Positions 6,916 to 40,092 of a stretch of DNA of 64,000 nt are shown here, in pieces (position 1 is the stretch's first letter; every line of letters starts with the position of its first letter). A program made the translations under genes and the position numbers. Source of the DNA: Streptomyces sp. NBC_00483. GTDB lineage: Bacteria > Actinomycetota > Actinomycetes > Streptomycetales > Streptomycetaceae. A model generated the notes under the pieces. The model ran no database searches. It saw nothing but the letters and a program-made list of their open reading frames with translations, and was not told the origin of the DNA. The stretch is taken from NCBI RefSeq assembly GCF_036013745.1, contig NZ_CP107880.1, forward strand, positions 930,001 through 994,000, in the 5' to 3' direction.

Positions 6916-8292
6916 TCAGGTCGCCGCCTTCTCGCACGCCGCCCCGAGCGCGGCCACTTCCTCCCGGATCGCCCGCGCCAGCACGTCGAGGTCCGGTACG
7001 GCGCTCGCGTCGGCGACGAGGCCGTAGTGGACCCGCCCGCGGTACGTCGACACCGCCACCGCGAGGGACTGGCCCTGGGCCAGCGGCGCCAGCGGGAAGA
7101 CCTCGGTGAGCGGGCAGCCGCCCAGTTTCAGGCCGAGGCTGGGCAGCGGCACGCTCGTGACCAGCAGGTCGAAGAGGAGGCGCGCGTTCTGGCCGACGAG
7201 GCCGCCGCCGAGCCGGAGGCCGAGCGGTGGGACGTGGTCGGCGAGCAGGGCGACGGCGCCCGCGCCGCGCGTGGGCCCGACGTCCTTGCGCCGGTTCATG
7301 GCGGCCCGTACGACCCGCAGCCGCTCCACCGGGTCCGGCTCGGCGACGGGCAGGCGCAGGAGGTAGCCGGAGAGCCGGTTGCCCTGCGGGTGGGCGGTGC
7401 GGGGCCTGCGCCGGGAGACCGGGACGAGGGCGCGGGGCTCGACGCCCTCGCTGCCGTCGCCGCGCTCGTCGAGCCAGCGCCTGACGGCTCCGGCGACCAC
7501 GGCTATCAGCACGTCGTTCACCGTGCCGCCGACCGTCTTGCGGATGCGGTGCACGTCGTCGAGGTCGAGCACGACCCCTGCGGTGCTCCGGGTGCCGCTG
7601 GCCTTCGAGGTGAGCGCGGGCGACGTGCGGACGCCCCAGGTGGCGCGGGCGACGGACGCGCCGATGGACACGGCCTGTGTGGCGCTGGTCGCCAGCGCCC
7701 GCACATGGTCGGGGTAGCGGCGCGGGTCGAGGTCACCGAGGGTGATCTCGCGCAGGCCGGGAAACGGGAGGCGCAGGCCGCGGCGCGGCGCGGGCGCGTC
7801 CTTCGGGGCGCGACCGGCGGGCAGGTCGATCGGGTCCATGACGCCGGCGGCGAGGGTCAGGGCGCGCAGCCCGTCGGCGAGGGCGTGGTGGAACTTGAAG
7901 AGCACGGCGAACGACGCGCCGTCGGCGGCCGGCAGCACATGCGCCTCCCACGGCGGGCGGCCGCGGTCGAGCGGGCGCTCCATCAGCGCGCCCGCGGCGG
8001 CGTGGAAGTCGTCGACGGGCCCGGCCATCCACACGTGGTCGAGCGGGTCGAAGTCGGCGGCCGGCACGCGGGCCGCGCCGCCGACCGGCACGAGCACGCC
8101 GGCGATCCGCATCCGCAGGCCCGCCACGCCCGCGGCGCGGGTGGCGAGCAGCTCGAAGGCGTGCCGGGCGGCTCCGGGGTCGTCGGCCTCGAACACGCCC
8201 AACGCCCCGAGGTGCATGGGGTGTTCGGCGGTCTCGATGTTCCAGAAAGTCAGGTCGAGTGGAGCGAGCAAGTCCGAACTCAGAGAGGTCAT
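6916..8292 (-). CDS. wax ester synthase/diacylglycerol acyltransferase (WS/DGAT) family
   Basis: The 458-residue protein matches the bacterial WS/DGAT family, which esterifies fatty alcohols or diacylglycerol with acyl-CoA to form storage lipid at the inner membrane face. The condensing motif HHALADG (His135, His136, Asp140) is intact. The N-terminal LAPLDLTFWNIETAEHPMHLG, the PPWEAHVLP segment and the later VNDVLIAVVAGAVRRWL and SGYLLRLPVAEPDP stretches are characteristic, and the length is normal (about 450-470). The start at 8292 follows a GAG-rich site; an upstream in-frame codon at 8355 would add an implausible tail. Streptomyces use such enzymes to store triacylglycerol. Confidence 0.9.
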   Translation of the reverse strand: MTSLSSDLLAPLDLTFWNIETAEHPMHLGALGVFEADDPGAARHAFELLATRAAGVAGLRMRIAGVLVPVGGAARVPAADFDPLDHVWMAGPVDDFHAAAGALMERPLDRGRPPWEAHVLPAADGASFAVLFKFHHALADGLRALTLAAGVMDPIDLPAGRAPKDAPAPRRGLRLPFPGLREITLGDLDPRRYPDHVRALATSATQAVSIGASVARATWGVRTSPALTSKASGTRSTAGVVLDLDDVHRIRKTVGGTVNDVLIAVVAGAVRRWLDERGDGSEGVEPRALVPVSRRRPRTAHPQGNRLSGYLLRLPVAEPDPVERLRVVRAAMNRRKDVGPTRGAGAVALLADHVPPLGLRLGGGLVGQNARLLFDLLVTSVPLPSLGLKLGGCPLTEVFPLAPLAQGQSLAVAVSTYRGRVHYGLVADASAVPDLDVLARAIREEVAALGAACEKAAT

Positions 8293-17239: not shown

Positions 17240-18033
17240 GCAGCACCGCCCTGTCCCTCGCAGTTCGCGACTCGTCCACGATGCTGCGCCGCAACTTCCT
17301 GCACGCCCGCCGCTACCCGTCGCTCACCCTGAACATCCTGCTGACACCCATCGTTCTGCTGCTGCTCTTCGTGTACGTCTTCGGCGACGTGATGAGCGCG
17401 GGGATCGGTGGCGGCCCCGCCGACCGGAGCGCGTACATCGGCTATCTCGTGCCGGGGATCCTGCTGATGACCATCGGCGCCACTCCGGCCGGGACCGCGA
17501 TCTCGGTCACGATGGACATGACGGAAGGGATCATGGCCCGTTTCCGTACGATGGCCATCCACCGCGGGTCCGTGCTGATCGGGCATGTCGTGGGTAGCGT
17601 GCTGCAAGCGGTCGCCGGCGTCGTTGTCGTCGGCGCGGTCGCGGTGGCCGTCGGCTTCCGCTCCACGGACGCGACCGCCCTGGAGTGGCTGGCGGCGTTC
17701 GGCCTGACGGTGCTGGTGGCCGTGGCGCTGAGCTGGGTGGCCGTCGGAATGGGCCTGGCCAGTCCGAACGCCGAGGCGGCGAGCAACAACGCGATGCCGC
17801 TGATCATCCTCCCGTTCATCTCCAGCGCCTTCGTGCCGATCGACGCGATGCCCGGCTGGTTCCGGCCGGTCGCCGAGTACCAGCCGTTCACGCCCTTCAT
17901 CGAGACACTGCGCGGACTGCTGCTCGGCACGCCGATCGGTCACAACGGGTGGCTCACGGTCGCCTGGTGCCTGGGCCTGACCGCACTCGGGTTCTTCTGG
18001 TCGAGGGCGCTGTTCAACCGCGATCCGGCGTAG
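17236..18033 (+). CDS. drrB: DrrB-type ABC-2 family permease
   Basis: This 265-residue membrane protein has about six transmembrane segments and the ABC-2 family pattern: an N-terminal amphipathic stretch, YLVPGILLMTIGATPAGTAIS, and the loop FISSAFVPIDAMPGWFRPVAEYQPFTPFIETLR that is typical of DrrB permeases. It overlaps drrA by 4 nt, so the two form one exporter of two ATPase and two permease subunits. The 3' end overlaps the convergent regulator gene by 20 nt. Confidence 0.9.
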   Translation: MSSTALSLAVRDSSTMLRRNFLHARRYPSLTLNILLTPIVLLLLFVYVFGDVMSAGIGGGPADRSAYIGYLVPGILLMTIGATPAGTAISVTMDMTEGIMARFRTMAIHRGSVLIGHVVGSVLQAVAGVVVVGAVAVAVGFRSTDATALEWLAAFGLTVLVAVALSWVAVGMGLASPNAEAASNNAMPLIILPFISSAFVPIDAMPGWFRPVAEYQPFTPFIETLRGLLLGTPIGHNGWLTVAWCLGLTALGFFWSRALFNRDPA

Positions 18034-21000
18034 CGGCGGCGCGGGCCGCGTCCCGCAGTTCGTCCCGCCCGAGGGCGGCGTACTCGGCCACCGCGTCGGT
18101 GTACGCCGCCCGGTCGGCGCTCTCGGCCGCCTGTCGGGCACGGGCCGCCGCCATCGTGGGCTGGAAGTCCCGCAGCACCCACAGCCGTTCGGCCAGGGCG
18201 AGCGTCCGTACGGCTTCCGGGGTACGGTCCGTGAGCCCGGCCGCGCCGAGCGCGTGCAGCACGGTGCCGAGGACGGGGAGTGCCAGCTGGTCGGCGGTCG
18301 GCCCCGCGTGCACGGCCCGCAGCCGGTCGACCGTGTCGGCGACCGGTGCGAGCCGGTCCGCGTACGCGTGCGCCGTCACCGCCGTCGCCTGGATCTGCAG
18401 AGCCCACGGGTCGTGCCACAGCTCCCCGTCGTGCTGTGCGCCGGCGGCGGGCAGCCGTGCGACGGCACGGCGCCACAGCTCAAGACCGGCCTCGGTGTCG
18501 CCGCGGGCGAGCGCGATCTCGGCGCGTACTCCCAGGTCCGGGCTGTAGAAGGGGTCCTTCTGCGCGGTGCCCTCGGCCTGTGCCCGCCGCTGCCAGGTCT
18601 CGGCCTCGTCCGGGTCCGCGCGTTGCAGGCAGGCGAGCGCGAATCCCCAGCGGATGCCGACGTAGTCGTTCTCGTCGCCGAACCGGGGCAGTGCCTCGCG
18701 GGCCGCCCCGAGGTAGCGGTACGCGGCGTCGCCGTCGCCCGTCGTCAGACACAGCTGGCTCAGCCGTGAGTAGCCCATGACCTCCAGGGGCGGGCTGTCG
18801 ACCGCCGCCAGGACGTCGACGACCCGCCGCGCCGATGCGAGCGTGCGGCCGATGTCGTGCTCGTACTCCCAGACGTACGTGGCGACGCTCTCGGCGACGG
18901 AGACGACCAACGGGTAGTCGCTGTCGCAGAGTTCGCGCAGCACGTCGTAGTCGGGAGGCAGCATCTCCGGTACGGCGACCAGCACGACCGCGATGGCGCG
19001 CAGCAGCGTGTCCGGCGGGGCCGCGGGCAGCCGACGCAGGGTGACGAGGTGGCGCAGGACGCGCGGTGCGTGGTCCACGATGAGGCTCGCCGCGCACAAC
19101 ACCGCGGCGGCCCGGGCCACTTCGACGTACCCGGGTTCGGGGCGGTAGTGCGAGAGCGGGGCGCCGGTGTCGGCCGCGAGGGCGAAGAGGCGGGCGAAGT
19201 CCGAGTCCGTGGACCACAGGGCGGCGAGTACAGCGGTGACGGCCGCGGTGGTGGCCCCCTCGCCGCGGGCCAGGGCGTGCCGGAGGGCGGTGACGAGGTT
19301 GTCCTGCTCGGACTTGATCAGCTCGCGAGTGTCGGGGGAACGCGGGCCGAGCAGTGTGTCGTAGTGAGCGACACCGAACTCGCGTGCCCAGGAGCAGAGT
19401 TGACCGAGAGCCCGTTCCTCCTCGCCGGATTCCGCGAGCCGGGCCGCGCTGAACTCCCGTACGGTCTCCAGCATCCGGAACCGGACCCCTGAGGGGGCGT
19501 CGGCGACGGTCAGGAGTGACTGCTCGGCGAGCTGCTCCAATACGCCCAATACGTCCAGCACGCCCAGCGCGTCCTTGCCGAGGACCCGTTCCGCCGCGTC
19601 GGCGGAGAACCCGCCGGGGAAGACGGACAGCGTGCACATGGCGGCGCGGGCCTCGTCCGCGAGGAGGTTCCAGCTCCACTCCACGACGGCGTGCAGGGTG
19701 CGGTGCCGCTCGGGGACGTCGCGTACGCCGCCGCGCAGCAGGGCGAAGCGGTCGCCGAGGCGGCGCGCGATCTCGGGCACGGACAGGGCCCGCACCCGCG
19801 CCGCGGCCAGCTCCACGGCGAGCGGCAGCCCGTCGAGGTGTCCGCACAGTTCGGCCACCGCGTCCGGCGGCAGGTCGACGCCGGGCCGCGCGGCCCTGGC
19901 CCGCTGGCCGAACAGCTCGACGGAGGTGTCGGGCCCCAGCTCCGGCAGCGCGTGCACCGCCTCCGACGTGAGCCCGAGCGGCGACCGGCTGGTGGCGAGC
20001 ACGCGCAGGTCGCGGGCGCGGGACAGCAGCGCCTGGACGAGGTCGGCGACCGCCCCGACGACGTGCTCGCAGTTGTCGAGGACCAGCAGCGCGGGTCCGG
20101 CACCGAGCGTCCGGACGATGCCGGACACCGGGTCGGCCGGGGCATGCCCGGCGACGGCGCCGTGCCGCCCCTCCCCCACGCCGAGCGCGGAGGCCACCTC
20201 CGCGGCGATGTCCGCGTCCGCGGGGACACCGGCCAACGGCACGGCGTGCACGACGCGTTGCCCGGCCCGGCGGGTCACGGCGTACGCGAGCCGGGTCTTG
20301 CCGAGTCCGCCGGGGCCGACAACGGTCACGGCGCGCGCCTCACGCAGCAGTCTCTCCACCGCGGCGATGTCCTGTTCACGGCCGAGGAGTTGGTTCGGTT
20401 CGTGCGGTACGCCGTGCCGGACGACGGCCGGTTCGTCCCGCAGCAACTCGGCCTGAATGTGACGGAGTTGAGCACCGGGCTCGGCACCCAGTTCCTCCCG
20501 GAGCCCACTGCGGTACGTCTCGTAACGGGCGAGCGCGGTGGAAGGGCCGGCCGTGGCGGCCTCGGCGCGGAGCAGTTCGGCGAGCACCTCCTCGTCGCGC
20601 GGCAGCCGTACGGCGGTCTCCGCCAGCGGGCCCGCGGCCTCCGCGTACCGGCCGAGCCGGGCGAGCGCGAGGGCCCGCGCGCGGGCGAGTTCCCGGCGGA
20701 CCGGGCCACGTTCGGCGCGCAGCGCGGCCACGGGATCGTGCGTGCCGCCGGCCTCCTCCGGGGCGCCCTCCCACAGGGCGAGTCCGGCCTCGGCCCCGGC
20801 CAGCGCGCCTGCGTGGTCCCCGGCCCTGGCCCGCTCCGCGCACACGGCGGCGTACCGCAGCAGCGCGGAGCTGTCGACCTGGTCATCGGCGAGGCCGAGC
20901 CGGTAACCGGTCGGCGTGCTCGCGATGACGTCGGCGCCCAGCTGGGCCCGCACCCGCGCGACGAGCACCTGCACCGCCTTGCCCGGGTGCTGCGGCAGCT

Positions 21001-21151
21001 CCTCAGGCCACAGCCCCGCCACCAGCCGCTCCGTGCTGCACCCGGTGCGCGGCTCGCTCGCGAGGAGGGCGAGCAGGCCGCGCAGCCGGGGCGCGGTGAC
21101 CTCCTGCCCGCGGTGGGCGACGCGGGGCAGGAGGGTCAGGTCGGTGGCCAT
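18014..21151 (-). CDS. AfsR/SARP-type transcriptional regulator with BTAD, NB-ARC ATPase and TPR-like domains
   Basis: The protein has 1045 residues. The N-terminal winged helix-turn-helix (about 1-85) is followed by the bacterial transcriptional activation domain (about 93-240: LLRYAAVCAERA, YETYRSGLREELG). A STAND/NB-ARC ATPase follows, with Walker A GPGGLGKTRL near 279-288 and LLVLDNCEHV as Walker B, and the C-terminal half is helical and repeat-like. Such proteins sense signals through the ATPase and activate promoters with 11-bp direct repeats. It is convergent with drrAB and may control them through the repeats at 16209-16235. The start overlaps the 3' end of the small membrane gene by 16 nt. 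Confidence 0.9.
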   Translation of the reverse strand: MATDLTLLPRVAHRGQEVTAPRLRGLLALLASEPRTGCSTERLVAGLWPEELPQHPGKAVQVLVARVRAQLGADVIASTPTGYRLGLADDQVDSSALLRYAAVCAERARAGDHAGALAGAEAGLALWEGAPEEAGGTHDPVAALRAERGPVRRELARARALALARLGRYAEAAGPLAETAVRLPRDEEVLAELLRAEAATAGPSTALARYETYRSGLREELGAEPGAQLRHIQAELLRDEPAVVRHGVPHEPNQLLGREQDIAAVERLLREARAVTVVGPGGLGKTRLAYAVTRRAGQRVVHAVPLAGVPADADIAAEVASALGVGEGRHGAVAGHAPADPVSGIVRTLGAGPALLVLDNCEHVVGAVADLVQALLSRARDLRVLATSRSPLGLTSEAVHALPELGPDTSVELFGQRARAARPGVDLPPDAVAELCGHLDGLPLAVELAAARVRALSVPEIARRLGDRFALLRGGVRDVPERHRTLHAVVEWSWNLLADEARAAMCTLSVFPGGFSADAAERVLGKDALGVLDVLGVLEQLAEQSLLTVADAPSGVRFRMLETVREFSAARLAESGEEERALGQLCSWAREFGVAHYDTLLGPRSPDTRELIKSEQDNLVTALRHALARGEGATTAAVTAVLAALWSTDSDFARLFALAADTGAPLSHYRPEPGYVEVARAAAVLCAASLIVDHAPRVLRHLVTLRRLPAAPPDTLLRAIAVVLVAVPEMLPPDYDVLRELCDSDYPLVVSVAESVATYVWEYEHDIGRTLASARRVVDVLAAVDSPPLEVMGYSRLSQLCLTTGDGDAAYRYLGAAREALPRFGDENDYVGIRWGFALACLQRADPDEAETWQRRAQAEGTAQKDPFYSPDLGVRAEIALARGDTEAGLELWRRAVARLPAAGAQHDGELWHDPWALQIQATAVTAHAYADRLAPVADTVDRLRAVHAGPTADQLALPVLGTVLHALGAAGLTDRTPEAVRTLALAERLWVLRDFQPTMAAARARQAAESADRAAYTDAVAEYAALGRDELRDAARAAATPDRG

Positions 21152-33795: not shown

Positions 33796-34521
33796 TCAGG
33801 TCACCGCGTACGCGATGTCGCGCACCGCCGTCCGCGGGTGGGTGAAGCAGCCGAAGTGGCCGCCGTCCAACAGGCGGGCCTCCGCCGTGTTGTCGGTGAC
33901 GGTGTGCCAGGCGCGGTCGGTGTCCTGCGAGAGGTCGTGGTCGTCCGTCCCGCGCACCGAGGTCAGCGGCACGCTCAGTGGCGGGCCTGTCGTGGGGCGG
34001 TAGTCCGTGAGGAGCGCGAGGTCGGCGGTCAGGGTCCGGGTGGCCAGTGTGGCCGTCTCGGTCGTGGTCAGGTCGGGGGTGTCCAGCCACTGGGGAGGCG
34101 TGTCGGCCTCCGCGCGGCAGGCGGCCGCGGCCTCGGCAGGGGGCGGGCTCCCGGAGACGATCAGGCGGCGCGGCTGCGGAAGGCCGAGCAGTGCGAGGTG
34201 GCGGCAGGTCTCGTAGGCGACGACGGCTCCCATGCTGTGGCCGAACAACGCGTACGGCTTGTCGGCCGCCCATTGCAGGGCGAAGGCGATCTGCCGGGAG
34301 AGTTCGCCGAGGCCCGACGGGTGCGGTTCGCCGACGCGGTCCTCACGGCCCGGGTACTGCACGGCCCACAGCTCGTACGCGTCGGGCAGATGGGGCAGCC
34401 AGCGCCGGTAGACGCTCGCCGCTCCCCCGGCGTGCGGGAAGCAGACGAGGCGGACGTCGGCGGTGGGAGAGGTCCGCAGCGGGCGCAGCCAGCGGGCCGC
34501 GGGCCCGGCCGCGGCGGTCAT
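33796..34521 (-). CDS. type II thioesterase (TEII)
   Basis: The 241-residue alpha/beta hydrolase matches NRPS/PKS editing thioesterases: WLRPLRTSPTADVRLVCFPHAGG at the N-terminus, VQYPGREDRVGEPH, the nucleophile elbow LFGHSMGAVVAYE, the Asp region VRGTDDHDLS and the His in LDGGHFGCFTHP. TEII proteins clear misprimed or stalled acyl groups from carrier proteins, and where no terminal TE exists they may release product. The ATG overlaps the NRPS stop (ATGA), so the two are coupled. The NRPS itself has no terminal TE, so release by this protein is possible. Confidence 0.92.
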   Translation of the reverse strand: MTAAAGPAARWLRPLRTSPTADVRLVCFPHAGGAASVYRRWLPHLPDAYELWAVQYPGREDRVGEPHPSGLGELSRQIAFALQWAADKPYALFGHSMGAVVAYETCRHLALLGLPQPRRLIVSGSPPPAEAAAACRAEADTPPQWLDTPDLTTTETATLATRTLTADLALLTDYRPTTGPPLSVPLTSVRGTDDHDLSQDTDRAWHTVTDNTAEARLLDGGHFGCFTHPRTAVRDIAYAVT

Positions 34522-37500
34522 GACCGGCCCGCCGAGGTGGTGGTCTGCGCGGTGTCGACGGCGCGTGCCATGTCGGCCAGGGTGGCCGAGGCCTGGAGTT
34601 CGCGCAGCGGGATCTCGGTGCCGAAGCGGTCGTTGACGGCGAGTGCGAGGCGCATGGTGAGCAGGCTGTCGGCGCCGAGGTCGTAGAAGTTGTCGTGGCG
34701 GGAGGCGGGGGCCGGGCCGAGTACGCGGGCCCATTCCTGTGCGAGGGCCTGCTCCGTGCCGGGCCGTGGTGGTTCCTGTGGCGTGGGTTCGCGTGGCGGC
34801 GCCGCCCAGGAGATGAGCTGTTTGCGGTCGACCTTTCCGTTGCCGTTCAGGGGGAGTTCGGGCAGCAGCAGGTAGTCGGCGGGCTGGGTGTAGGAGGGTA
34901 GCCAGCGCCGGGCGTGGTCGCGTACGTCGTCGAGGTCCACGCCGTCGCCCTGGGGCACGAGGTAGGCCACGATGCGGCGGCCCGCTCCGGTGCCGGCCAG
35001 GACGGCGACGGCCCTGCCGACGGCCGGGTGCCTGCCCAACACCCCTTCGATCTCGCCGAGTTCGATGCGGTATCCGTTGAGTTTGATCTGGTGGTCGGCG
35101 CGGCCGAGGAACTCCAGGACGCCGTCGGGCCGGTAGCGGCCGAGGTCTCCCGTCAGGTACCAGCGCATGCCGTCGCGCTCGACGAAGCGTTCGGCGGTGC
35201 GGTCCGGGTCGGCGCGGTAGCCGAGGGCCACGCCGGTGCCGCCGATCCACAGTTCGCCGGGCACCCAGTCCGGGCAGTCGCGTCCGTAGGCGTCCACGGC
35301 CCGGTAGTGCTGGTTGCGCAGTGGGGTGCCGTAGGGCACGGACGGCCAGTCGGGGTCGGTCTCGGTGACTTCGTGGAAGTTGGAGTAGACGGCGCCTTCC
35401 GTCGCCCCGCCGCAGGCCACGAAGTGGCAGGAGGGCAGCAGGCGGCGCAGGCGTCCCGGCAGGTCGGTGCCGATCCAGTCGCCGCCGGTGAACACCAGGC
35501 GCAGGCTGTCGGTCGCGCCGCGCAGCTCGCCCGCGGTGATCAGCATGTCGAGCAGTACGGGGACGGAGTCCCAGACGGTGACGGCGTGCGTCTCGATGAG
35601 GCGGAGCCATGCCTCGGGGTCGCGTCGTTCCTCGGGACCGGGCATGACGACGCGGCCGCCCGCCATCAGCGGACCGAAGATCTCGTAGACGGACAGGTCG
35701 AAGTCGAGCGCGGAGACGGACAGACAGCAGTCCGCGGGGCCGACGTCCCAGCGCCCGTTGAGGTCCTCCAGGGAGTTCACGGCGGAACGGTGACTGACCT
35801 CGACACCCTTGGGGGTGCCGGTGGAGCCGGAGGTGAAGATGATGTATGCGGGCGCCTCACGGTCACCCAACACCGGTGCGGGCAGCAGTGGTTGGGCAGG
35901 ATCGAGGGCGGCCTGCCACGACAGACGCAGCGGCCCGTCGTCGGGTCGCCGCCCACTGGGCGTCGCGGCGTGCTCGGGATCACGTATCACCACGCGCGCC
36001 CCGGACACCCCGAGCACCTGGCCCCTGCGCTGCTCGGGCTGTTCGGGGCCGATGGGGACGTAGCAACCACCGGCCGCCAATACACCCAGGGCGGCAGTGA
36101 CTTGGGCCTCTCCTGAGGTCAGACAGATCCCGACGGGTTCGCCGCCGCGCACCCCGAGGTCGCGCAGGCGGGCCGCGAGACGCAGGGCACGCTCGGCGAG
36201 CGCGCCCCGGGTGAGGGTCGTGTTCTCGTGGTGCAGGGCGGGAGGGGTGGCGTCGGTGGCGGCCAGTTCGAAGAAGCGCTCGTGCAGCAGCAGCCCGCTC
36301 TCGGGCCCGGTGGTGTCGTTGACCCGGGCGCGGGTCTGCCGCTGGCGCGCCGGAAGCCGCTGCGGGACCGGCGAGCTCCAGTCACGGTCGGCGAACGCCC
36401 GCAGCACGTCGTCGCAGTACTCGGTCATCGCGTCGAGCGTTCCGGGCAGGAACACCTCCTCCACGGCGTCCCAGGCCAGCACGTAGCCGTCCGCCGGATC
36501 GTCGGAGACGGGGTGGGCCAGACAGTCGAGCCAGACCTGCGGAGTGTGCGAGAGCATCCAGGTCAGCGAGCCGAACCGGCGCGTGAACCGGCGGGAGACC
36601 CAACTCTGTTCGAGTTCCGTGTAGACGACGCCGAGCATGCCCGTGCGCTGCCCATGACCGCGCGCCGCCTGCTGGAAGTCGTCCACGGTGGGCGCTTGTG
36701 CGCGCAGCACCCCCTCGGAGCCGTGGGCGAGTGCGCGGAGATCGGACGGCGCTCCACCGGGCACCCGGGCAGCCGTCAATCGGCTGAAGTCGCCGACGGT
36801 CCGCTCTAGTTGGGGATTGCCACCGGGCCGGTCGAAGGTGGGCATGTTGAGGACGAATCCCGCTGCCGGGTCCGCCTGCCAGCGGTGCAGGGTCGCGCAG
36901 AACGCGGCGAACGGGACGGCCCGCGCGGAGATGCCGCAGGCCCGCGCCCGGTCCTGGATACGCCGCCACACCGCGCCCGGCACGGGCACCTGGCGCCGGG
37001 TGAACCGGGGGACGCCCGCCAGTTCCTCGGGTTCGGTGGCGTACGGCAGCCGGGGCGCGGTGCGCGGCGCGGAGGTGCCGTCGCCACCCTCGCCGATCCG
37101 GCGCTCGTCCCGCTCCCCGTTGTCGTCGGAGCTACGGCGCCGGTGGTCCGCGAAGTCGTGGGACACGTCCGGGAGTTCACCGTCATACAGCGCCACCAGG
37201 TCCTCGAAGAGTACGCGGATGGCCACCGGGTCGGCCGCCAGCAGGTCGATGTCGGCGTGCAGCCGGGATCCGCCGCCGGGCAGGAGGGTGAGGCCGAGGT
37301 CCATCACGCGTCCGGCGGCGACATCCAGGCGGCGGTGCGCCATCCGCTCGCGGATGCGGTCCAGTTCGCCCGCGACGGTGGCGGGGTCGGCGCCGCGCAG
37401 GTCGTCGACGACGAGCCGGCCGGTCGGCGACGCCAGCGGGGCCCCTTGGTCGAGGCCGTTGAACGCGGTGCGCAGGGACACGTGCCGTTGCTGGAGCCGG

Positions 37501-37685
37501 TGGTAGGCGTCCTGGAGCCGGGTCTGGTCCGGCGCCCGGTCGTGGTCGAACTCGAAGGTCATGTGGCAGCCGGTCCCGCCGAGCGGCGTGCCGTCCTGGC
37601 GGCCCAGCAGATACGCCCGCTGGACGTCGGTGAGCGGATAGGGGGCGAGGTGGGAGGCGTAGGAGGTGTGGGGGGCCTGCGTCAT
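34518..37685 (-). CDS. single-module nonribosomal peptide synthetase, Cy-A-T
   Basis: The 1055-residue protein has three domains. A heterocyclisation (Cy) domain at about 15-440 begins YPLTDVQRAYLLGR, has the DxxxxD core (DLLAADPVA), and ends with GVVYTELEQSW and SHTPQVWLDC. An adenylation domain at about 460-960 has AYIIFTSGSTGTPKG, LDFDLSVYEIFG, GGATEGAVYSN, YLTGDLGRY and GRADHQIKLNGYRIELGEIE. A carrier domain near 970-1040 has DLGADSLLTM for phosphopantetheine. There is no epimerase, oxidase or TE. Cy domains condense and cyclise Cys, Ser or Thr to thiazoline or oxazoline; the binding-pocket residues (read by hand as D, L, Y, D, F, G, C, V) fit no code I know. The start overlaps the aminotransferase stop (ATGA). 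Confidence 0.9.
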   Translation of the reverse strand: MTQAPHTSYASHLAPYPLTDVQRAYLLGRQDGTPLGGTGCHMTFEFDHDRAPDQTRLQDAYHRLQQRHVSLRTAFNGLDQGAPLASPTGRLVVDDLRGADPATVAGELDRIRERMAHRRLDVAAGRVMDLGLTLLPGGGSRLHADIDLLAADPVAIRVLFEDLVALYDGELPDVSHDFADHRRRSSDDNGERDERRIGEGGDGTSAPRTAPRLPYATEPEELAGVPRFTRRQVPVPGAVWRRIQDRARACGISARAVPFAAFCATLHRWQADPAAGFVLNMPTFDRPGGNPQLERTVGDFSRLTAARVPGGAPSDLRALAHGSEGVLRAQAPTVDDFQQAARGHGQRTGMLGVVYTELEQSWVSRRFTRRFGSLTWMLSHTPQVWLDCLAHPVSDDPADGYVLAWDAVEEVFLPGTLDAMTEYCDDVLRAFADRDWSSPVPQRLPARQRQTRARVNDTTGPESGLLLHERFFELAATDATPPALHHENTTLTRGALAERALRLAARLRDLGVRGGEPVGICLTSGEAQVTAALGVLAAGGCYVPIGPEQPEQRRGQVLGVSGARVVIRDPEHAATPSGRRPDDGPLRLSWQAALDPAQPLLPAPVLGDREAPAYIIFTSGSTGTPKGVEVSHRSAVNSLEDLNGRWDVGPADCCLSVSALDFDLSVYEIFGPLMAGGRVVMPGPEERRDPEAWLRLIETHAVTVWDSVPVLLDMLITAGELRGATDSLRLVFTGGDWIGTDLPGRLRRLLPSCHFVACGGATEGAVYSNFHEVTETDPDWPSVPYGTPLRNQHYRAVDAYGRDCPDWVPGELWIGGTGVALGYRADPDRTAERFVERDGMRWYLTGDLGRYRPDGVLEFLGRADHQIKLNGYRIELGEIEGVLGRHPAVGRAVAVLAGTGAGRRIVAYLVPQGDGVDLDDVRDHARRWLPSYTQPADYLLLPELPLNGNGKVDRKQLISWAAPPREPTPQEPPRPGTEQALAQEWARVLGPAPASRHDNFYDLGADSLLTMRLALAVNDRFGTEIPLRELQASATLADMARAVDTAQTTTSAGRS

Positions 37686-38881
37686 GAAGTCCTCTCCAGT
37701 CGGTCTGCGGCCTGGGCCGCGGCGACGAGCGTCTCGGCGCCGCGCCGCACTTCGTCGTCCGTCACGGTCAGCGGCGGCATGACCCGCACGCAGTTCCCGG
37801 CGCTGCCACCAAGACCCACCAGGAGCCCGCGGGTCCGGCACTCCTCCTGCACGGCGGCGGCCGTCGCCGGGTCCTGGAACGCGACCGCGAGCAGCAGCCC
37901 CCGCCCCTGCACCCGCCGTACGCCGCCGACGCCCGCGAGCCCCGTCTCCAGGAGGCCGCGCAGGAGATGCCCTGCCGTGTGCGCCCGAGCCGGGAGGTCA
38001 CGGTCCTCGATCACGTCGAGGGTCGCGAGCGCGGCGGTCGTGGACAGCTGATTGCCGCCGAACGTCGAGATCGACGGCATCGGCAGGCAGTTCATGACCT
38101 CACGCCGTCCGACGACGCCGCCCAGCGTCAGCCCGCCGGCCAGGCCCTTGGCGAACACCAGCAGGTCCGGCCTGACGTCGTCGTCCCACTGGTGTCCCCA
38201 CCACCGTCCGGTACGCCCCCAGCCGGTCTGTACCTCGTCGCAGATCAGCAGGGCTCCGTGGGAGCGCACCGCGCGGGCGTAGGCGGCGAGTTGCCCGTCG
38301 GCGAGCGGGACCGCCCCGGCCACGCCCTGCACCGGTTCGGCGATCAGCGCGGCCACCGGACGGTCCGGCTCGCTGTCCAGGACCCGCGTCAACTCACTTA
38401 CTCCATGGGCAACTTGATGCTCGTCCGCCACCTCGCCGGGCCCGACCTGCGGCGGGACGTCCGGCACGAGGTCGACCCGCAGCGGGGTGCGTCCCGCGCC
38501 GTGCCAGCGGTGGTCCCCGGTCACGGCGAGCGCGCCGAACGAGCGGCCGTGATAGCTGTGCCGCAGCGCCACGACCCGGCCGCTGCGCCGGTGCTCGGTG
38601 GCCAGCAGCAGCGCCGTCTCCACGGCCTCGGTGCCCGAGCAGGTGAAGAACACCACCGCGTCGTCGATCCCGGACAGTCGCGCGATGCGCTCGGCCAACT
38701 CCACCTGGGAGGCGATGAGATAGAACGTCGAGGTGTGCACGACGCCGGTCCGCAGCTGCCGCTCGACGGCCTCGCGCACCTCCGGTACGTCGTAGCCGAG
38801 CAGGTTGACGGCGATGCCGGAATAGAAGTCCAGGTACGTACGGCCGTCGCTGCCGCGCACGGTCCGGCCGCTGCCCGACAC
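37682..38881 (-). CDS. class III PLP-dependent aminotransferase
   Basis: This belongs to the fold-type I acetylornithine/omega-aminotransferase family: TYLDFYSGIAVNLLGYD, VFFTCSGTEAVETAL, LRHSYHGRSFGALA, LIAEPVQGVAGAVP, LLICDEVQTGWGRTG (Asp contacting PLP) and the Lys in LVFAKGLAGGL. It probably supplies or modifies an amino-acid or amine building block for the adjacent NRPS. GTG 38881 gives 399 residues, but the frame continues upstream with family-like sequence (RHRAVLPPWSPLSYREPLE) and no ATG, GTG or TTG; initiation could be at ATC 38965, six nt after AGGAGG, giving 427 residues. The 3' end overlaps the NRPS gene by 4 nt. Confidence 0.88.
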   Translation of the reverse strand: MSGSGRTVRGSDGRTYLDFYSGIAVNLLGYDVPEVREAVERQLRTGVVHTSTFYLIASQVELAERIARLSGIDDAVVFFTCSGTEAVETALLLATEHRRSGRVVALRHSYHGRSFGALAVTGDHRWHGAGRTPLRVDLVPDVPPQVGPGEVADEHQVAHGVSELTRVLDSEPDRPVAALIAEPVQGVAGAVPLADGQLAAYARAVRSHGALLICDEVQTGWGRTGRWWGHQWDDDVRPDLLVFAKGLAGGLTLGGVVGRREVMNCLPMPSISTFGGNQLSTTAALATLDVIEDRDLPARAHTAGHLLRGLLETGLAGVGGVRRVQGRGLLLAVAFQDPATAAAVQEECRTRGLLVGLGGSAGNCVRVMPPLTVTDDEVRRGAETLVAAAQAADRLERTS

Positions 38882-38946
38882 GATCTCCAGCGGCTCCCGG
38901 TACGACAGCGGGGACCAGGGCGGCAGGACCGCCCGGTGCCTCTCGA

Positions 38947-40092
38947 TCAGACTGCGGTCACCGATGACGGGCCTCCTTCGTCGTGTGCGCCGGGATGCGG
39001 GACGACAGCGGGCGCCGGCCCGGCGGGCGCTCCCAGCGCCATGCCTCCGACGTGCATCACCTCACTGCCGGACCCGGCCAGGAACGGCGCCGTGACGGGC
39101 GCTTCGAGTGCACCGATGGGGCAGGCGCCGAGACCGAGATCGGCCGCGGTCAGGCACAGCGTCTGCATCAGACATCCGGTGTCGCGGTAGACGAGGCTGA
39201 GCGTCATGCCGCCGTACTTCCATGACGTACGGGTCACGTGGGAGGCGAAGTACAGGCTGACGGGCGGGGCTTGGTCCATCCGTCCCGGCACGGTGACCAG
39301 CCGGTCGACGAGCTCTTCGAGGTGCGCGTCCCACTCACCGCGGCGCTCCAGCGTGTGCCCGAAGGGGTCGTAGTGGTGGACGCCGGGCTCGAGGCCGTCG
39401 ACGGACCTGGCCAGGACGTAGATCTCCAGGCTGTGCCGACCGCCCCCGGAAGGGGATGGCCGCTGGGTCTGCTGGTGCTCCAGTGGCGACAGGTGGCCCC
39501 GCACGCGCGCCGCGCGCCCCAGCAGTGTTCCGAGGAGGTGGAGCGGCACCGGCTCGCTCGTGAACTCGCGCAGACTGCGCCGCTGGGCGAGCACGGTTTC
39601 GAAGGGGTGGGTCGGCGCCGGGGCCGGCGGATCGGGCAGCCGCGTGACGGTTTCCGGCGTGGCCGGTGCCGGTAAGCGGGCCGGGGGTGGTGTGCCCGGC
39701 AGGGAGTCGATGTCCGGGGGCACCATCGAGGCCTCCCGATGTGCGGCGCTCTGGTGCGGGCTGCAGCCGCCGGGACGATCGTGCGGGCTGTCGCGCGCGG
39801 CAGACACGGTGACGAGACCGGCCCGCGCCGCCGCCTCCAACACCTCCTGTAATCGGACGAGTTGTGGGGCATCGGGCCACCGGCGGTGCAGCTCCTCGGC
39901 GGTGGTGGGGGCGCCCAGTCGGGACAGGACGCGCAGCGTGAGTTCGGGGTCACCGGACGGGTCCGGCCAGGGACATCGGCGGCCGCTGCGCGCGTCGATC
40001 AGGAGGACGGGATGGCCCGCCGGATCCTCCTCGTCGGACGCCCACTCCATCAGGAGGTTCGGGTCGCGTTGATAAAGGAGCGGATCACTCAT
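38947..40092 (-). CDS. SagB-type nitroreductase-fold dehydrogenase (thiazoline/oxazoline oxidase candidate)
   Basis: The protein has 381 residues. The C-terminal half (about 165-370) is a nitroreductase-fold FMN domain of the SagB/McbC kind: FETVLAQRRSLREFTSEPVPL, SLEIYVLARSVDGLEPGVHHYDP, SLVYRDTGCLMQTLCLTAADLGLGACPIG. The N-terminal 150 residues are a variable helical region ending in a Pro-rich linker. Such enzymes oxidise azolines to azoles in modified peptides and NRPS products, which fits the Cy module in the same operon. A TTA leucine codon (39850-39852, codon 81) is in frame. As the first gene of the operon, it makes the whole unit a candidate for bldA control. Confidence 0.85.
   Translation of the reverse strand: MSDPLLYQRDPNLLMEWASDEEDPAGHPVLLIDARSGRRCPWPDPSGDPELTLRVLSRLGAPTTAEELHRRWPDAPQLVRLQEVLEAAARAGLVTVSAARDSPHDRPGGCSPHQSAAHREASMVPPDIDSLPGTPPPARLPAPATPETVTRLPDPPAPAPTHPFETVLAQRRSLREFTSEPVPLHLLGTLLGRAARVRGHLSPLEHQQTQRPSPSGGGRHSLEIYVLARSVDGLEPGVHHYDPFGHTLERRGEWDAHLEELVDRLVTVPGRMDQAPPVSLYFASHVTRTSWKYGGMTLSLVYRDTGCLMQTLCLTAADLGLGACPIGALEAPVTAPFLAGSGSEVMHVGGMALGAPAGPAPAVVPHPGAHDEGGPSSVTAV

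What the first reader, a model, noticed from the sequence alone, without database searches (positions are those of the whole stretch)
33796..40092. Compact orphan NRPS operon: SagB oxidase, aminotransferase, lone Cy-A-T module, TEII
Four minus-strand genes (last three with ATGA overlaps) form a self-contained unit. A Cy domain normally needs an upstream carrier to supply an acyl group, but this module has none, so the Cy donor must come from elsewhere or the domain works differently. Together with an azoline oxidase, a class III aminotransferase and an external thioesterase this predicts a very small thiazole, oxazole or related heterocycle. I know of no characterised cluster with exactly this set.
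Basis: partly seen in the sequence, partly recalled or inferred. Interest (0 to 1): 0.78.

Follow-up and report, generated by a model that had tools for sequence, protein, structure and literature searches.

The report
Orphan one-module NRPS heterocycle operon
A Streptomyces-type bacterium carries four overlapping genes that look able to build a very small ring-containing molecule on a single-module assembly enzyme, and that enzyme belongs to a rare, uncharacterised family whose substrate-reading site differs from those of its better-known relatives.

Summary
Four minus-strand genes lie at 40092-33796: a SagB/ThcOx-type azoline oxidase, a class III aminotransferase (AT), a complete Cy-A-T NRPS module and a type II thioesterase. 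All four overlap if, as seems likely, the AT starts at an ATC codon. The window holds no second carrier domain. A lone Cy-A-T module has precedents: holomycin (HlmE) and azaserine (AzsO with thioesterase AzsB). The module belongs to a 12-protein actinobacterial group of lone Cy-A-T modules (100/100) with its own code, DLYD[FLM]GC[VI]YK, shared by none of 75 other Cy proteins compared, and with the Cy helper glutamine replaced in 12 of 12. The two further SagB relatives examined sit beside YcaO (RiPP-type) genes. The AT is related to the beta-alanine-type aminotransferase of pyrimidine breakdown. I read this as an orphan small-heterocycle pathway, a new variant of a known kind. Substrate, donor and product are unknown; a diamino acid giving an imidazoline or imidazole is a bold, unexcluded reading.

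The parts
38947..40092 (-). SagB/ThcOx-type FMN azoline oxidase, 381 aa, two TTA codons (81 and 140); invariant Lys-Tyr pair K292-Y293
   Evidence: TIGR03605; fold nearest ThcOx, BmdC, McbC; K292/Y293 invariant in 15 of 15 of A2 (that this pair is the catalytic motif is recalled); TTA count
37682..38965 (-). class III aminotransferase, probably from an ATC start at 38965 (the GTG start at 38881, as in the 399-aa record P0129, cuts off a conserved N-terminus)
   Evidence: PF00202 284 bits; N-termini of homologues and the same ATC in L009; separate clade from the housekeeping AT
34518..37685 (-). single-module NRPS Cy-A-T, 1055 aa
   Evidence: Pfam, PchE/FmoA3 alignment, AlphaFold model pLDDT 77 matching PchE, FmoA3 and BmdB
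36357..37646 (-). heterocyclization (Cy) domain; DxxxxD at residues 149/154, dyad T358 and D389 kept, helper Gln replaced by Leu391 (P0001 numbering)
   Evidence: residue roles from PMC9547227 passages
34806..36296 (-). adenylation domain with code DLYDFGCVYK; Asp at GrsA-278 position is codon 35570-35568
34554..34757 (-). carrier (T) domain, motif LGADSL
   Evidence: PF00550 55.8 bits; the only carrier found in the window
33796..34521 (-). type II thioesterase, 241 aa, GHSMG motif
   Evidence: PF00975 125.9 bits; sequence

Best explanation
This is a small, self-contained biosynthetic operon for a very small heterocycle, built on a member of an uncharacterised family of lone Cy-A-T modules. 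Shown: the four genes, their kept catalytic motifs, the family-wide A-domain code, a recurring AT-module pairing, and no second carrier in the window. Inferred: the AT, a relative of the beta-amino-acid aminotransferase of pyrimidine breakdown, makes or processes the unusual amino-acid building block. The A domain loads that non-standard amino acid with a side-chain nucleophile onto T. The Cy domain, whose condensing and cyclising residues are kept, joins it to a donor supplied in trans (another loaded copy of the same module, or a carrier elsewhere in the genome) and closes an azoline-type ring. SagB, probably recruited from a YcaO-type RiPP pathway, oxidises the ring on the carrier as BmdC does in bacillamide synthesis, and the free thioesterase releases the product as AzsB does for azaserine.
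For: Four overlapping genes with kept motifs. A 12-protein family of lone Cy-A-T modules is one group at 100/100 on a long stem in a tree of 40 Cy domains, all reading DLYD[FLM]GC[VI]YK. Of 75 other Cy proteins, 59 read a Cys-type code, 7 a Ser/Thr-type code, 6 something else and 3 have no A domain; Cys322 and Tyr331 occur in none. Cy dyad T358/D389 kept in 12 of 12. AT group of 23 at 100/100, apart from 24 rows with the housekeeping type; the housekeeping copy of this genome lies beside a carbon-nitrogen hydrolase and a dihydropyrimidinase-like amidohydrolase. AT and module listed on a contig of the same length in 4 of 11 relatives (S. kanamyceticus, Haloactinospora alba, NPDC055060, NRRL S-1521). 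SagB model nearest ThcOx, then BmdC; the two further SagB relatives examined (G044, G109) sit beside YcaO genes. Precedents: AzsO/AzsB and HlmE, BmdC acting on the carrier-bound thiazoline.
Against: No donor was identified. The helper glutamine is Leu or Ile in 12 of 12, against Gln in 50 of 75 other Cy proteins (21 of which could not be aligned there), so ring closure could be altered or lost, although BmdB-Cy2 lacks that Gln too. Two of the four shared contigs are whole chromosomes by size, so linkage there is weak. No gene neighbourhood of a diverged family member could be read. SagB is not listed on the four shared contigs, so ring oxidation is at best a feature of one subgroup.
Confidence: 0.5

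Rival explanations
1. A holomycin-like logic with cysteine: the module loads L-Cys despite its altered code, condenses two Cys-derived units using a second copy of itself as donor, and SagB makes a thiazole.
For: HlmE/Hom7 is a lone Cy-A-T that selects L-Cys, in Yersinia ruckeri without a dedicated C domain in the cluster (PMC3826145 passages). The code shares D235, L236, Y239 and K517 with Cys-type codes, and one otherwise Cys-type domain (P0125, DLYDLSLIW) also has Asp at 278.
Against: Positions 278, 301, 322 and 331 differ from the Cys-type code in 12 of 12 and position 330 in 10 of 12. No PPC-DC decarboxylase, acyl-CoA dehydrogenase or globin is among the 13 flanking proteins scanned.
Confidence: 0.2
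2. An azaserine-type acyl transfer: the Cy domain joins a trans donor to a side-chain hydroxyl or amine without closing a ring, and TEII releases an amino-acid derivative; SagB then acts on something else.
For: AzsO is a lone Cy-A-CP with a free thioesterase that forms an ester (PMC10445470 passages). The family's Cy domain lacks the helper Gln. SagB is not listed on the contigs of the four AT-plus-module relatives.
Against: AzsO homologues have the dyad Thr replaced by Asn; here Thr and Asp are kept in 12 of 12. AzsO has a predicted N-terminal docking domain; here only about 15 residues precede the Cy domain and 1-13 are modelled with pLDDT under 50.
Confidence: 0.12
3. A diamino acid (2,3-diaminopropionate or a methyl homologue) is the substrate; the AT installs or removes its beta-amine, the Cy domain closes an imidazoline and SagB makes an imidazole.
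For: Asp at position 278 in 12 of 12 and smaller or altered pocket residues G301, C322, Y331; AT related to the beta-amino-acid AT of pyrimidine breakdown, whose known substrates (beta-alanine, 3-aminoisobutyrate; recalled) differ from diaminopropionate only at C2; Cy helper residue changed in the whole family.
Against: The code does not resemble the one Dab code seen in PMC12283262 (DVWQMIGDDK, passages; its tables were not read), and Asp278 also occurs once with a Cys-type code (P0125). No diaminopropionate-making enzyme was looked for. No imidazoline-forming Cy domain turned up in three paper searches (listings only).
Confidence: 0.12
4. A fragment: the module works as an accessory module for another NRPS of the genome, such as the giant one about 310 kb away.
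For: The genome holds 28 other condensation-type matches, 25 of them in two giant ORFs at 577-655 kb of the contig. No donor carrier lies in the window.
Against: Lone modules of this kind recur as one group in several genera, 4 of 11 with an AT on the same contig. None of the 13 flanking proteins scanned is an NRPS part.
Confidence: 0.06

Closest known systems
AzsO/AzsB of azaserine biosynthesis (Streptomyces fragilis)
   Same: Lone Cy-A-CP module plus a free thioesterase that releases the product; donor supplied on a carrier in trans
   Different: AzsO's dyad Thr/Asp are Asn and it forms an ester; here both are kept in 12 of 12. AzsO has a predicted N-terminal docking domain; none is apparent here. 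The word aminotransferase does not occur in that paper's main text (PMC10445470 passages)
HlmE/HomE, Hom7, HolA of holomycin and thiomarinol (dithiolopyrrolones)
   Same: Lone Cy-A-T module with flavin-dependent oxidoreductases and a thioesterase in the cluster
   Different: Those clusters have a PPC-DC decarboxylase, acyl-CoA dehydrogenase, globin and N-acyltransferase, and the module selects L-Cys; here AT and SagB, and a different A code. HlmE's sequence was not compared (PMC3826145 passages)
BmdB module 2 with BmdC (bacillamide)
   Same: Cy-A-PCP module served by a free wHTH-plus-nitroreductase oxidase that acts on the carrier-bound azoline
   Different: BmdB is multimodular, with alanine upstream and a decarboxylase for the last unit; here one module and an AT; BmdC is only 16% identical in the fold alignment
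FmoA3 (JBIR-34/35)
   Same: Cy-A-T architecture, fold match, non-standard amino acid (alpha-methyl-serine)
   Different: Code read here from the alignment as DAYNVSSCW against DLYDFGCVY; 29-32% identity in the fold alignments
SagB/YcaO gene pairs (azole-RiPP type)
   Same: The SagB of this operon is related to SagB proteins of which the two examined lie beside YcaO genes
   Different: Those two loci show no match to the AT, NRPS or TEII, and no YcaO was seen beside this operon

Membership tests
Heterocyclizing NRPS Cy domain | DxxxxD motif | tested here: met
   D149/D154 in the window; in the family second Asp 12 of 12, first 11 of 12
Heterocyclizing NRPS Cy domain | Thr/Asp catalytic dyad | tested here: met
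   T358 and D389, 12 of 12; in the 75 other Cy proteins 55 Thr and 74 Asp; roles from PMC9547227 passages
Heterocyclizing NRPS Cy domain | helper Gln two residues after the dyad Asp | tested here: not met
   Leu or Ile in 12 of 12; Gln in 50 of 75 others, 21 unaligned there, 4 other letters. Not strictly required: absent in BmdB-Cy2
Heterocyclizing NRPS Cy domain | ring formation on the carrier | not testable with these tools
   needs in vitro assay
AzsO-type ester-forming Cy module | dyad Thr replaced by Asn | tested here: not met
   Thr 12 of 12
AzsO-type ester-forming Cy module | N-terminal docking domain | tested here: not met
   about 15 residues before the Cy domain, 1-13 with pLDDT under 50
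AzsO-type ester-forming Cy module | free thioesterase for release | tested here: met
   TEII gene overlaps the NRPS gene
Dithiolopyrrolone (holomycin) cluster | PPC-DC decarboxylase, acyl-CoA dehydrogenase and globin alongside | tested here: not met
   none among the 13 flanking proteins scanned
Dithiolopyrrolone (holomycin) cluster | module activates L-Cys | tested here: inconclusive
   code DLYDFGCVYK against Cys-type codes; no assay
SagB/McbC-type azoline oxidase | SagB-type nitroreductase domain over the family cut-off | tested here: met
   TIGR03605 114.5 bits, cut-off 78.4
SagB/McbC-type azoline oxidase | Lys-Tyr motif (recalled as catalytic) | tested here: met
   K292-Y293 invariant in 15 of 15 aligned sequences
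SagB/McbC-type azoline oxidase | azoline dehydrogenation | not testable with these tools
   needs assay
beta-alanine-type aminotransferase of pyrimidine breakdown | falls in the housekeeping group | tested here: not met
   on the other side of a 100/100 branch; 46% identical to the own housekeeping copy
Class III aminotransferase | Pfam PF00202 and the PLP Lys and Asp motifs | tested here: met
   PF00202 284 bits; FAKG and DEVQTGWGR present (roles recalled)
Type II thioesterase | free-standing PF00975 protein beside an NRPS gene | tested here: met
   125.9 bits

The most novel reading that the evidence does not exclude
The family is a new class of Cy domain that closes a nitrogen heterocycle: its A domain loads a diamino acid such as 2,3-diaminopropionate, made or trimmed by a beta-amino-acid-type aminotransferase, and the Cy domain makes an imidazoline which SagB oxidises to an imidazole, with the donor carried by a second copy of the same module.
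Probability: 0.12. Interest if true: 0.8.

Novelty: new variant of a known kind. Interest (0 to 1): 0.5.

Why it matters
Lone Cy-A-T modules with a free thioesterase are among the smallest NRPS systems, and the two precedents read here (holomycin, azaserine) gave unusual chemistry. This family has an A-domain code found in no paper of the library searched, a changed Cy active site and, in several relatives, a partner aminotransferase, so it offers a compact, testable case for what Cy domains can do beyond Cys, Ser and Thr. It also suggests that an azoline oxidase of RiPP type was moved into an NRPS operon in one lineage.

Tried and rejected
Rejected: that the 44-45% identical modules of other Streptomyces genomes are the same system. 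Thirteen stretches around such and weaker matches were fetched; none of them matched SagB, AT or TEII above 80 bits, the only level printed, and several hold further NRPS modules. Rejected: that SagB relatives mark the same operon. The two non-own loci found in 111 genomes show no AT, NRPS or TEII match at 1e-5 but hold YcaO. Rejected: that AT DNA matches mark the operon. AT-like DNA rings in 364 of 392 Streptomyces genomes, the own one included; 8 of the best 11 non-own ones and the own paralogue were fetched, all 46-50% identical with no partner genes in 12-20 kb. In 394 genomes of the class 7 rang at 1e-80, the own one included; 2 of the 6 others were fetched (51 and 54% identical AT), with no partner genes. 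One search, around another centre, gave 0 of 392 and seems to have drawn the same genomes; the draws look nested, so genome counts must not be added. The promoter/terminator scan gave nothing. The plasmid searches gave general Cy-A proteins under 60% identity and no SagB match. Weighed and kept low: diaminopropionate from Asp278 alone, because P0125 has Asp278 in an otherwise Cys-type code.

Limits: no neighbourhood of a diverged family member (S. durmitorensis, S. kanamyceticus, H. alba and others) could be read; equal contig length in the listings is the only linkage evidence there. The protein searches scored only the 7998-8000 candidates sharing most words, so the families may be larger. 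The genome-contig scan, made with one protein, found only L009. Only Cy, SagB and AT trees were made; the code and Cy counts rest on pairwise alignments to the window's protein.


Full report
WHAT IS THERE. Four minus-strand genes fill 40092-33796: SagB-type oxidase, class III aminotransferase (AT), Cy-A-T NRPS module and type II thioesterase. Domain scores: AMP-binding 263 bits, PP-binding 55.8, thioesterase 125.9, Aminotran_3 284, SagB TIGR03605 114.5 against a cut-off of 78.4. The Condensation Pfam score is only 31.0 (cut-off 30.6), but PchE aligns over Cy and A with E 7e-181. The ATGA overlaps at AT/NRPS and NRPS/TEII are real. The AT frame has no ATG, GTG or TTG where its homologues begin; an ATC at 38965, six bases after AAGGAGG, sits exactly where P0130, P0135, P0137 and P0140 start, and is the same in a near-identical strain, L009. 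The GTG at 38881 would cut off the conserved RHRAVLPPW segment. If ATC is right, SagB and AT overlap as well. SagB holds two TTA codons.

SURROUNDINGS. The window is G000:C1:930001-994000 of a 10.24-Mb single-contig genome, 98% identical over 23 kb to Streptomyces sp. NBC_01016. Upstream on the same strand is a LysR regulator, then an MFS transporter on the other strand; downstream are a small GNAT, an Asp/Glu racemase-like protein, an F420H2-quinone-reductase-like protein, TetR, an esterase-like protein and an F420-dependent-oxidoreductase-like protein. None of the 13 flanking proteins scanned is an NRPS part. A carrier-domain HMM built from 73 sequences finds only the one carrier in six frames of the window. 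The genome has 28 other condensation-type matches, 25 of them in two giant ORFs. L009 is collinear over its whole length, so it shows conservation but not boundaries.

THE MODULE FAMILY. A database search with the Cy region gave 86 proteins. Eleven of these, with the window's own, are lone modules of 1021-1120 aa; in a tree of 40 Cy domains (the 12, and 28 of the other 75) they are one group at 100/100 with a stem of 0.70 changes per column. All 12 read DLYD[FLM]GC[VI]YK at the ten code positions. Of the 75 others 59 read a Cys-type code, 7 a Ser/Thr-type code, 6 something else and 3 have no A domain (types named from recall; counts); one has Asp278, none Cys322 or Tyr331. In the Cy domain the DxxxxD motif and the Thr/Asp dyad (T358, D389) are kept; the helper Gln is Leu or Ile in 12 of 12, against Gln in 50 of 75 others, 21 of which could not be aligned at that place. 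The roles of these residues come from PMC9547227 (passages). The code strings tried are in no paper of the library.

THE AMINOTRANSFERASE. Its 22 closest listed relatives (55-75% identity) and the window's own form a group of 23 at 100/100, apart from 24 rows that include this genome's other copy. That copy (G000:C1, 7.506 Mb) stands before a carbon-nitrogen hydrolase and a dihydropyrimidinase-like amidohydrolase, which marks it as the beta-alanine-type aminotransferase of pyrimidine breakdown (from established knowledge of that pathway). Eight columns differ between the two groups at the 90% level. By equal contig length an AT of the group and a family module share a contig in four of the eleven module relatives: S. 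kanamyceticus (10,133,897), Haloactinospora alba (3,867,954), NPDC055060 (103,229) and NRRL S-1521 (86,206). The first two are chromosome-sized, so only the last two argue for closeness; for 7 of 11 modules and 18 of 22 ATs no such match is listed. L009 shows all four genes together.

THE OXIDASE. 41 SagB relatives were listed. None has a contig length of those four organisms. The window's SagB groups with P0002, P0003 and P0007 at 100/100 on a stem of 0.72; P0007 is from S. durmitorensis, which also has a family module (P0044). The two non-own relatives found in 111 Streptomyces genomes lie directly beside YcaO genes and have no AT, NRPS or TEII match at 1e-5. The AlphaFold model (pLDDT 74) matches ThcOx, BmdC and McbC. 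So SagB looks like an addition from an azole-RiPP background; this rests on two contexts.

HOW RARE. AT-type DNA rings in 364 of 392 Streptomyces genomes, but the best non-own match is 1e-71, and the eight fetched were of the housekeeping identity level with no partner genes. The A-domain DNA rings at 1e-150 in 1 of 362, the own genome, probably a subset of the same genomes. By protein, 37 of 121 genomes have a match at 1e-150, the own one included, the best other at 755 bits and 45% identity; 13 stretches fetched hold no partner genes above 80 bits.

MECHANISM. Unlike AzsO the dyad here is kept and no docking domain is apparent, so I expect a ring rather than an ester; the missing helper Gln speaks the other way. 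BmdC shows how a free oxidase acts on the carrier-bound ring (PMC8795117, passages). Shown: gene set, motifs, family code, AT group, SagB kinship. Inferred: substrate class, donor in trans, ring closure, oxidation, release. The substrate is the weakest point: Asp278 with altered pocket residues and a beta-amino-acid-type AT point to a diamino acid, but the code does not resemble the one Dab code seen in PMC12283262 (passages; tables not read) and one Cys-type domain also has Asp278.

KNOWN OR NEW. Ten paper searches (listings) and passages of seven papers gave no description of this set. The library lacks most subscription papers and MIBiG was not available, so this is not proof of novelty. 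I rate it a new variant of a known kind: lone Cy-A-T plus thioesterase, with an aminotransferase partner and its own code, and in this lineage an azoline oxidase.

Noticed in passing
window 38965-38963: Probable ATC start codon of the aminotransferase gene, with AAGGAGG six bases upstream and several homologues starting at the same place; unchanged in L009
   Followed up: partly
G000:C1:577276-655061 (outside the window): Two giant NRPS ORFs (open frames of 13,025 and 13,867 codons) with 12 and 13 condensation-type matches, about 310 kb from the operon
   Followed up: no
L062:2518-5977 and L060/L061 (G109): YcaO-SagB gene pairs in Streptomyces; in L062 two ABC-transporter-like ORFs follow (read by eye). 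They look like an azole-RiPP type; no precursor was looked for
   Followed up: partly
L099:8910-14220 (G000:C1 about 7.506-7.511 Mb): Housekeeping paralogue of the operon aminotransferase, with a PucR-like gene (by eye), a carbon-nitrogen hydrolase and a dihydropyrimidinase-like gene after it
   Followed up: yes
proteins P0064, P0071, P0074 (Kitasatospora): 589-590 aa proteins with a Condensation-type (Cy) domain and a carrier but no adenylation domain
   Followed up: no
G000:C1:8229067-8229819 (L014): A second, distant SagB-like frame (33% identity) in the same genome
   Followed up: no
window 18014-21151: Large regulator-like protein with BTAD, an AAA/NB-ARC-type ATPase domain and a weak Trans_reg_C match
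   Followed up: no
protein P0125: A metagenomic pyochelin-synthetase-like protein whose otherwise Cys-type code has Asp at position 278
   Followed up: no
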